NCBI RefSeq assembly: GCF_029201445.1
Contig: NZ_CP102381.1
Span: forward strand, 1,302,001 to 1,366,000
Direction: 5' to 3'
DNA: 64,000 nt
From: Thiomicrorhabdus lithotrophica
Lineage (GTDB): Bacteria > Pseudomonadota > Gammaproteobacteria > Thiomicrospirales > Thiomicrospiraceae
The notes beneath the pieces were generated by a model. The model was given only the letters and a program-made list of their open reading frames with translations. It did no database searches and was not told the DNA's origin. Both the position numbers and the translations under genes were made by a program. Shown piece after piece: positions 48,044 to 53,185 of this stretch. Every line of letters begins with the position of its first letter. The stretch's first letter is position 1.

Positions 48044-48529
48044 ATGAAAATTGAAAACAATAAAGTAGTACAAATTAAATACGTTCTTACTGATGCCGAA
48101 GGTAATCAATTAGATGCTTCGGGTGACGAACCTTTAGCGTACTTGCACGGTAACCATAACCTTATCCCAGGTTTAGAAGCTGAGTTAACAGGGAAAGAAA
48201 CGGGTGATAAGTTCACCGCAACCATTCCAGCAGCAGAAGCCTACGGGGAAAAACAGGATCATCTGATTCAATCTGGCGTTCCAAAAGAAATGTTCCAGGG
48301 TGTCGAAGAGTTTGAAATTGGTATGCGTTTTGAAGCTCAGTCAGAACAGGGTTTTCATTCAGTTATGATCACAGAAATATTAGACGAAACCGTTACTGTT
48401 GATGGAAATCACGAAATGGCTGGCATGGATTTAACGTTTGCCATTGAAGTGGTTGATGTTCGTGATGCAACGGAAGAAGAAATTTCTCACGGACACGCTC
48501 ACGGAGTTGGTGGACATCACCACGATTAA
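48044..48529 (+). CDS. SlyD-type FKBP peptidyl-prolyl isomerase (copy 1)
   Basis: A 161-residue FKBP domain with the inserted IF loop of the SlyD family: YLHGNHNLIPGLEAELTGKETGDKF, then GVEEFEIGMRFEAQSEQG, then a His-rich tail (HGHAHGVGGHHHD) that could bind nickel or other metals. Length and layout fit SlyD/SlpA-like isomerases and chaperones. The second, closely similar gene follows 150 bases on. It is divergent from hemJ. Confidence 0.92.
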   Translation: MKIENNKVVQIKYVLTDAEGNQLDASGDEPLAYLHGNHNLIPGLEAELTGKETGDKFTATIPAAEAYGEKQDHLIQSGVPKEMFQGVEEFEIGMRFEAQSEQGFHSVMITEILDETVTVDGNHEMAGMDLTFAIEVVDVRDATEEEISHGHAHGVGGHHHD

Positions 48530-48679
48530 TTTCGCTTTTATGGCGACTATTTGCCTAGGCAAAAAAGTGCAGATTTCACCCTGAAACGTTATCATAGATT
48601 CATGCAGGCTAAATTCTTTAGAATATCTAGCGAATTTAGTAATTAACAAACAATCAAATTTGAGCAGGACAAATCAGAC

Positions 48680-49159
48680 ATGAACATTCAGCAAGATAAA
48701 GTTGCATTAATTGAATACACTTTAACCAATCAACACGGTGAACAAATCGATGCATCTAATGGTAATCCACTCGCTTATCTTCACGGTCATCACAATCTAA
48801 TTCCGGGCTTAGAAGCTGAACTTGAAGGTAAAACAGTAGGTGATAAATTCACAACAACTATTCCAGCTGACAAAGCTTATGGAGATCGTGTTGATGCTTT
48901 AGTTCAAACTGTTGCTAGCTCAATGTTCCAAGGTGTGGAAGAACTTGAAGTGGGTATGCGTTTTGAAGCGCAATCAGAACAAGGCATGCACTCTGTTGAA
49001 GTAACGCATATTGAAGGTGATCAAGTAACGGTTGATGGTAACCACCCTCTTGCTGGAGAAGCTTTAACATTTGAAGTTGAAGTTGTCGGGTTACGTGAAT
49101 CAACTCCAGAAGAGATTGAACATGGTCATGCTCATGGCGACGGTGGTGTTCAGCACTAA
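48680..49159 (+). CDS. SlyD-type FKBP peptidyl-prolyl isomerase (copy 2)
   Basis: A 159-residue paralogue of the preceding gene, sharing the YLHGHHNLIPGLEAELEG, GVEELEVGMRFEAQSEQG and VDGNHPLAG segments. Its His tail is shorter (HGHAHGDGGVQH), so metal binding may differ. It arose by tandem duplication; the copies keep the fold but differ in the loop around residues 70-80. A strong terminator follows. Confidence 0.92.
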   Translation: MNIQQDKVALIEYTLTNQHGEQIDASNGNPLAYLHGHHNLIPGLEAELEGKTVGDKFTTTIPADKAYGDRVDALVQTVASSMFQGVEELEVGMRFEAQSEQGMHSVEVTHIEGDQVTVDGNHPLAGEALTFEVEVVGLRESTPEEIEHGHAHGDGGVQH

Positions 49160-52556: not shown

Positions 52557-52670
52557 AATAAAAATACATTGTTAATATTCAATTAGTTACAAGGTATTTA
52601 ACATTTTTTTGTTATATTAAACACATGTTGGCATGACGATTGATATAAAGTAGTTGTAAATAAAAAATTC

Positions 52671-52704
52671 AGATTAAAAGTGTCAATAAACTGCCACTTA
52701 ATCT
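52671..52704 (+). promoter_or_regulatory. Inverted repeat in the leader of the CheZ-like gene
   Basis: AGATTAAAAGTG and CACTTAATCT form an imperfect hairpin (two-base bulge) ending 25 bases before the start codon. It could control translation; an imperfect sigma-54-like sequence (TTGGCAT..TTGAT) lies at 52628-52643, but lacks the essential -12 GC. Confidence 0.35.
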
Positions 52705-52729: not shown

Positions 52730-53185
52730 ATGACTACATTGAATACCACTCAAAAAGTACAAACTTGTTTAGAGTTTATTGACCAGCGTTTAGAAACCAC
52801 TTCTGAGCAAACCATTCAAATAGCTGAAATGATTATTGCTGATATCAAAAATCTGACCGATGGTTACCAGGCCGCCATCAATAATGGTAATTTACAAGCG
52901 CATTCAGAATTGGTTAGAGCCACTCAAATGAATTGGGTAAACCAACTACACGATATTATTCTGGAGCAAACTAACCGTGACTTAAACGGTCAGGTCATTA
53001 TTGCACTGCAAAAGTTTGTTACTAGCCTGAATGAAAACCAATTAAAACACTACCCTTTTGAACTACCAAGTGCTGTTGCGAGTAAATTACCAAATGAGCA
53101 TGAGTATCTAACGCAAGCCGAGATTGATATTTTAATGGGGCAGCAAAACTTGTTTGACGAACCACACTCTCAATCAAAACACTAA
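52730..53185 (+). CDS. Short CheZ-like protein with FliM-like CheY-binding tail
   Basis: A 151-residue helical protein. LHDIILEQTNRDLNGQVI (residues 73-90) matches the CheZ catalytic segment, whose E. coli form reads QDLTGQVI with Asp143 and Gln147; here these are Asp84 and Gln88. The C-terminal LTQAEIDILMG (127-137) resembles the LSQAEIDALL motif at the N-terminus of FliM that binds phospho-CheY. CheZ is normally about 210 residues, so this is a compact form. It is alone, with no che or flagellar genes beside it. Phosphatase activity is inferred. Confidence 0.75.
   Translation: MTTLNTTQKVQTCLEFIDQRLETTSEQTIQIAEMIIADIKNLTDGYQAAINNGNLQAHSELVRATQMNWVNQLHDIILEQTNRDLNGQVIIALQKFVTSLNENQLKHYPFELPSAVASKLPNEHEYLTQAEIDILMGQQNLFDEPHSQSKH

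What the first reader, a model, noticed from the sequence alone, without database searches (positions are those of the whole stretch)
52730..53185. Compact CheZ-like protein with a FliM-like CheY-binding tail
The segment RDLNGQVI keeps the Asp and Gln of the CheZ active site (Asp84, Gln88), in a chain of only 151 residues. Its end (LTQAEIDILMG) looks like the FliM N-terminal motif LSQAEIDALL that binds phospho-CheY, while CheZ normally ends in a different but related CheY-binding helix. It is an orphan outside any che operon and may serve a CheY-like protein other than the main motility one.
Basis: partly seen in the sequence, partly recalled or inferred. Interest (0 to 1): 0.65.

Follow-up and report, generated by a model that had tools for sequence, protein, structure and literature searches.

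The report
Compact second CheZ-like phosphatase
A sulfur bacterium carries, besides its normal chemotaxis off-switch enzyme CheZ, a second and much shorter relative with the same key residues and its own conserved control DNA, probably switching off a CheY-type signalling protein.

Summary
The 151-aa ORF at 52730-53185(+) is a real, selected, single gene, and it is a remote, shortened homologue of CheZ. Orthologues occur in about two thirds of sampled Thiomicrorhabdus-family genomes (dN/dS 0.02-0.06). A profile of 24 orthologues aligns to canonical CheZ over the catalytic helix (pair E 3e-6; best of 50 column shuffles 0.014), placing D84/Q88 on the CheZ DxxxQ pair. The gene fails Pfam's CheZ cut-off and lacks the AXXFQ motif and the CheZ N-terminus. 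The genome also has a canonical 226-aa cheZ beside cheY/cheA. The FliM-like tail is real, but canonical CheZ tails carry the same type of motif. D/Q and tail erode together in a few lineages.

New here: 22 of 23 upstream regions carry a sigma54-like TGGCAY-N5-TTGA site, 20 with a FleQ-box-like GTCA-N6-TGAC about 53 nt downstream. The pair occurs nowhere else in ~1 Mb examined. This suggests flagellar/c-di-GMP regulation. Two incomplete, flagella-less genomes keep the gene with DxxxQ, so a target other than the motor CheY is possible.

Best reading: a second, compact CheZ-type phosphatase for a CheY-like regulator (candidate: the orphan 180-aa CheY2). Catalysis and partner are inferred. New variant of a known kind.

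The parts
52730..53185 (+). Compact CheZ-like protein gene (151 aa)
   Evidence: 24 orthologues, dN/dS 0.02-0.06, profile match to CheZ
52745..53047 (+). Predicted helical hairpin: helices at residues 6-52 and 55-106
   Evidence: AlphaFold2 on a joint orphan + CheZ alignment, mean pLDDT 73; alignment of orphans only gave pLDDT 56
52979..52993 (+). D84-L-N-G-Q88, aligned with the CheZ catalytic Asp143...Gln147 pair
53108..53140 (+). LTQAEIDILMG, CheY-binding-type helix (predicted helix 129-137) after a ~20-residue low-confidence linker
53141..53182 (+). Extra tail absent from CheZ: QQNLF (QxxLF kept in 19 of 24 orthologues) and a C-terminal His (23 of 24)
52629..52643 (+). Conserved promoter-like element TGGCATGACGATTGA (sigma54-like -24; -12 is GA, not GC)
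   Evidence: 22 of 23 orthologue upstream regions; shuffled frequency 0.0004; single match in the window
52682..52695 (+). FleQ-box-like element GTCAATAAACTGCC, 53 nt downstream of the -24-like element
   Evidence: 20 of 23 orthologues, mostly at exactly 52-54 nt; the pair is found only at this gene in 0.99 Mb; consensus quoted in PMC6120874
53213..53250 (+). Intrinsic terminator (GC-rich inverted repeat plus T run)
   Evidence: read from sequence

Best explanation
The gene encodes a second, compact CheZ-type phosphatase. SHOWN: sequence homology to the catalytic part of CheZ, alignment of D84/Q88 with the CheZ pair, a CheY-binding-type helix near the C-terminus, coexistence with canonical CheZ, purifying selection, and a conserved two-part upstream footprint. 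INFERRED: the protein dimerises into a shortened four-helix bundle, captures a phosphorylated CheY-like protein by its tail and places Q88 (helped by D84) to activate the water that hydrolyses the aspartyl phosphate, as in CheZ. INFERRED: it is expressed under FleQ/sigma54-type flagellar or c-di-GMP control, independently of the che operon. Its target is probably a CheY-type regulator whose dephosphorylation must be set separately, with the orphan 180-aa CheY2 as first candidate.
For: Profile-profile match to CheZ, 14-100 vs 90-173, E 3.3e-6; best of 50 column shuffles 0.014. 19 of 24 orthologues hit Pfam CheZ with E <= 1, best 2.4e-5; the next most frequent family is an unrelated eukaryotic helical domain (GIT1_C). 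The orphan profile reaches two canonical CheZ proteins beside cheY in distant gammaproteobacteria, in L073 across the active site and tail. D84 kept in 22 of 24 and Q88 in 20 of 24. Purifying selection. Promoter footprint. CheY2 keeps the DWN and TAE active-site neighbourhood of flagellar CheY; 9 of 10 CheY2 genomes carry the orphan, all nine with D, Q and tail intact.
Against: Below the Pfam cut-off (18.7 vs 30.7 bits). AXXFQ, found next to DxxxQ in proteobacterial CheZ (PMC7750401), is EQTNR here. Orthologues in T. cannonii, T. chilensis, ZW0627, G034 and G331 have lost D and/or Q, so catalysis is not needed in every lineage. Co-occurrence with CheY2 is weak (one-sided p 0.054, genomes not independent). 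Foldseek listed no CheZ among its top 50. No biochemical evidence.
Confidence: 0.6

Rival explanations
1. Non-catalytic CheZ derivative: it binds CheY-P through the tail, as a sink, scaffold or localisation factor, and DxxxQ is dispensable.
For: D/Q replaced by D..E, E..Q or V..E in L021-L024 and L026, and lost in L072/G331, while the gene and (in L021-L024 and L026) its upstream footprint persist. The QxSLF tail stays in L021-L024.
Against: In the lineages that lost D/Q the QxE[IV]D CheY-binding core has usually eroded too, and L026 and L072 have no recognisable tail, so binding and catalysis seem to be lost together. D and Q are kept throughout the window's own clade.
Confidence: 0.22
2. It serves the same motor CheY as canonical CheZ, as a redundant or condition-specific second phosphatase under another promoter.
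For: Most carriers are flagellated and have one canonical cheZ. The upstream footprint resembles flagellar FleQ/sigma54 control.
Against: Two genomes with no detected FliM, rod/hook genes or canonical cheZ (G007, G009; 86-88% complete) keep the gene with DxxxQ; G009 also has no detected CheA.
Confidence: 0.3
3. A decaying duplicate of cheZ without function.
For: Eroded active site in a few lineages; absent from about a third of family genomes.
Against: dN/dS 0.02-0.06, no stop codons in any of the 24, conserved promoter footprint, and it does not look like a recent copy of the resident CheZ (about 20% identity).
Confidence: 0.04
4. Unrelated helical hairpin that resembles CheZ by chance.
For: Long helical proteins give weak matches; single-sequence Pfam E is only 0.0017; fold search uninformative.
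Against: Shuffled-column control, reciprocal profile hits to canonical CheZ, and the same order of active-site helix, linker and CheY-binding helix.
Confidence: 0.05

Closest known systems
CheZ (PF04344), canonical, e.g. own 226-aa CheZ at L041:9154-9834
   Same: LxxIxLxQxxxDLxGQV catalytic helix, helix before the hairpin turn, linker, QxxIDxL CheY-binding-type helix
   Different: About 75 residues shorter, no N-terminal part, short linker, AXXFQ replaced by EQTNR, 14-residue extension after the CheY-binding helix, own promoter outside the che operon, DxxxQ not universal in the family
Remote CheZ orthologues with low identity (Helicobacter pylori; Azorhizobium caulinodans orphan cheZ, PMC7750401)
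   Same: Divergent CheZ with conserved DxxxQ; the Azorhizobium cheZ also lies outside the che cluster
   Different: Those are, to my knowledge, the only CheZ of their organism and keep AXXF(Y)Q; here a canonical CheZ coexists
FliM N-terminal CheY-P-binding peptide
   Same: L[ST]QxE[IV]DxL motif
   Different: Here near the C-terminus, behind a CheZ-like catalytic hairpin; no FliM domain

Membership tests
CheZ (PF04344) | Score above the curated family cut-off | tested here: not met
   18.7 bits against 30.7; orthologues also below
CheZ (PF04344) | Homology over the catalytic helix and hairpin | tested here: met
   hhalign E 3.3e-6 against shuffled best 0.014; reciprocal profile hits
CheZ (PF04344) | Catalytic DxxxQ pair | tested here: met
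   D84/Q88 in the window gene and 18 other orthologues; lost or changed in 5 of 24
CheZ (PF04344) | AXXF(Y)Q motif next to DxxxQ | tested here: not met
   EQTNR in the window gene
CheZ (PF04344) | C-terminal CheY-binding helix after a flexible linker | tested here: met
   LTQAEIDILMG, predicted helix 129-137 after a low-confidence linker; binding itself not tested
CheZ (PF04344) | Dimeric four-helix bundle | tested here: inconclusive
   Helical hairpin predicted, but with CheZ rows in the alignment; Foldseek gave generic hairpins; dimers cannot be modelled here
CheZ (PF04344) | CheY-P phosphatase activity | not testable with these tools
   needs biochemistry
FleQ/sigma54 flagellar regulon | TGGCAC-N5-TTGCW promoter | tested here: not met
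   -24 half and spacing met in 22 of 23, but -12 reads GA or GT in all of them; sigma54-like sites near flagellar and che genes of this genome have GC
FleQ/sigma54 flagellar regulon | GTCA-N6-TGAC FleQ box near the promoter | tested here: inconclusive
   Present and positionally conserved in 20 of 23, but the box is loosely defined and unreliable in Pseudomonas (PMC6120874); the window copy ends TGCC

The most novel reading that the evidence does not exclude
A dedicated, compact CheZ for a CheY-like regulator outside the motor-switch pathway, under FleQ/c-di-GMP-type control, that persists in lineages which have lost flagella and canonical CheZ (and, in one, CheA).
Probability: 0.25. Interest if true: 0.65.

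Novelty: new variant of a known kind. Interest (0 to 1): 0.45.

Why it matters
Genomes with two CheZ proteins are rare: a survey of 523 genomes counted 105 CheZ homologues in 102 genomes (PMC2829493), with length criteria that would miss a protein like this. A second, minimal CheZ would show how little of CheZ is needed for phosphatase action. It would also show that CheY-P decay can be tuned by a separate transcriptional programme, and it gives a natural series of intact and eroded active sites for testing what else CheZ does.

Tried and rejected
Structure from the 24 orthologues alone: pLDDT 56, no useful PDB match. Joint alignment with CheZ: pLDDT 73 hairpin, but partly circular, and Foldseek gives generic coiled hairpins. 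PDB sequence search: nothing. FliA (sigma28) promoter upstream: no better than shuffles. CheY4 (L076) as unique partner: present in many genomes with and without the orphan. CheY2 as obligatory partner: 15 orphan-bearing genomes lack it. CheD-CheA2 locus as home of the orphan: it carries its own 193-aa protein with a YDKLSQ motif, not an orphan orthologue. Literature: no compact second CheZ found in the held library.

Full report
OBSERVATION. The ORF 52730-53185 (+) is as described: 151 aa, RDLNGQVI at 83-90 with D84 and Q88, LTQAEIDILMG at 127-137. It stands alone, with a terminator-like hairpin right after its stop. The divergent upstream gene is a DNA-alkylation/HEAT protein; downstream lie LysR, pirin-like and FemAB-like genes. 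The neighbourhood is shared by most orthologues, including MAGs and cultured Thiomicrorhabdus.

REALITY OF THE GENE. 24 of 58 related genomes carry an orthologue, all inside the same family; all 24 frames are open. Close pairs show dN/dS of 0.02-0.06. A class-wide sample of 369 genomes added one eroded orthologue, G331 (L072), plus two hits that are canonical CheZ proteins beside cheY. The family is therefore narrow in range but old enough to have diverged to about 37-50% identity.

WHAT IT IS. Single-sequence Pfam gives CheZ as best but weak hit (E 0.0017, below cut-off); 19 of 24 orthologues hit CheZ, best E 2.4e-5. Profile-profile comparison with about 30 CheZ sequences aligns residues 14-100 with CheZ 90-173 at E 3.3e-6, against 0.014 for the best of 50 column shuffles. 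LHDIILEQTNRDLNGQVI lies on LTEIMLAQSFQDLTGQVL; columns L73, Q80, D84, L85, G87, Q88, V89, Q129 and L135 are at least 90% conserved across both families. By the CheZ anatomy given in PMC7750401 (N-terminal helix, four-helix bundle, linker, C-terminal helix) the protein keeps the hairpin turn, the catalytic helix, a shortened linker and the CheY-binding helix, and lacks the N-terminal portion. It differs in lacking AXXF(Y)Q, reported as conserved in proteobacterial CheZ, and in having 14 residues after the CheY-binding helix, with a QxxLF element (19 of 24) and a terminal His (23 of 24). The structure prediction gives the expected hairpin, linker and short helix only when CheZ rows are added (pLDDT 73; orphans alone 56).

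OTHER CheZ IN THE GENOME. A canonical 226-aa CheZ lies at L041:9154-9834 between cheY and cheA. A second chemosensory locus, CheD-CheA2 (L183), is followed by a 193-aa protein with FQFYDKLSQRL (D-x3-Q) that matches no Pfam family.

PARTNER. The genome has an orphan flagellar-type CheY of 180 aa (CheY2, L078) with the VSDWNMP and LITAE neighbourhoods of motor CheY. CheY2 is found in 10 of 37 family genomes; nine of these have the orphan CheZ-like gene, all nine with D, Q and tail intact. Fifteen genomes have the gene without CheY2, five of them with a changed active site. One-sided Fisher values are 0.054 and 0.07, without correction for relatedness. This makes CheY2 a candidate, no more. G007 and G009 (88% and 86% complete) have no FliM, no rod/hook genes and no canonical CheZ, yet keep the gene with DxxxQ. 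G007 keeps CheD-CheA2 and a CheV-like protein; in G009 no CheA and no full single-domain receiver was found. Missing contigs could explain part of this.

REGULATION. In 22 of 23 orthologue upstream regions there is TGGCA[CT]-N5-TTG[AT], usually about 97 nt before the ATG. In 20 of these a GTC[AG]-N6-TGNC box follows, mostly at 52-54 nt; shuffled sequences give the first element at 0.0004 and the pair never. In 0.99 Mb of fetched DNA the pair occurs only at this gene. In L029, where the HEAT gene is not adjacent, the footprint is still there, so it belongs to the CheZ-like gene. The first element has the sigma54 -24 half and spacing but GA or GT instead of GC at -12, unlike the TTGCT sites near flgB and cheW in the same genome. 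The second resembles the FleQ consensus GTCaNTAAAtTGAC; FleQ is reported to bind also downstream of RpoN sites (PMC6120874 and the title of its reference 10). That paper also warns that the FleQ motif is unreliable. A sigma54 activator gene sits just upstream of genes for a probable sensor kinase and a receiver-bearing regulator in the flagellar cluster (L191:3070-4170). The footprint is solid; its reading as FleQ/sigma54 control is inference.

FUNCTION. Most likely a second, compact CheZ-type phosphatase for a CheY-like protein. The co-erosion of DxxxQ and the CheY-binding core in T. cannonii, T. chilensis, ZW0627 and G034 fits a linked bind-and-dephosphorylate role that was relaxed there, while something else (footprint, QxSLF tail in L021-L024) stays under selection.

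VERDICT. Observation correct; interpretation partly right. New variant of a known kind; moderate interest.

Noticed in passing
L183:7731-11056 (own genome): Second chemosensory locus CheD-CheA2 followed by a 193-aa protein with a CheZ-like FQFYDKLSQRL (D-x3-Q) motif and no Pfam match; kept in the flagella-less genome G007 (L184).
   Followed up: partly
L078:3029-3571: Orphan 180-aa flagellar-type CheY (CheY2) with a long basic C-terminal extension, more like the che-operon CheY of other family members than its own genome's che-operon CheY.
   Followed up: partly
window 53141-53182: Orthologues share QxxLF after the CheY-binding helix (resembles beta-clamp-type pentapeptides such as QLSLF) and almost all end in His.
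   Followed up: no
L072 (G331): A distant orthologue next to the same YcgN-like gene has lost both DxxxQ and the tail in a flagellated genome.
   Followed up: partly
window 48044-49159: Two adjacent SlyD-like (FKBP-type) peptidyl-prolyl isomerase genes in tandem.
   Followed up: no
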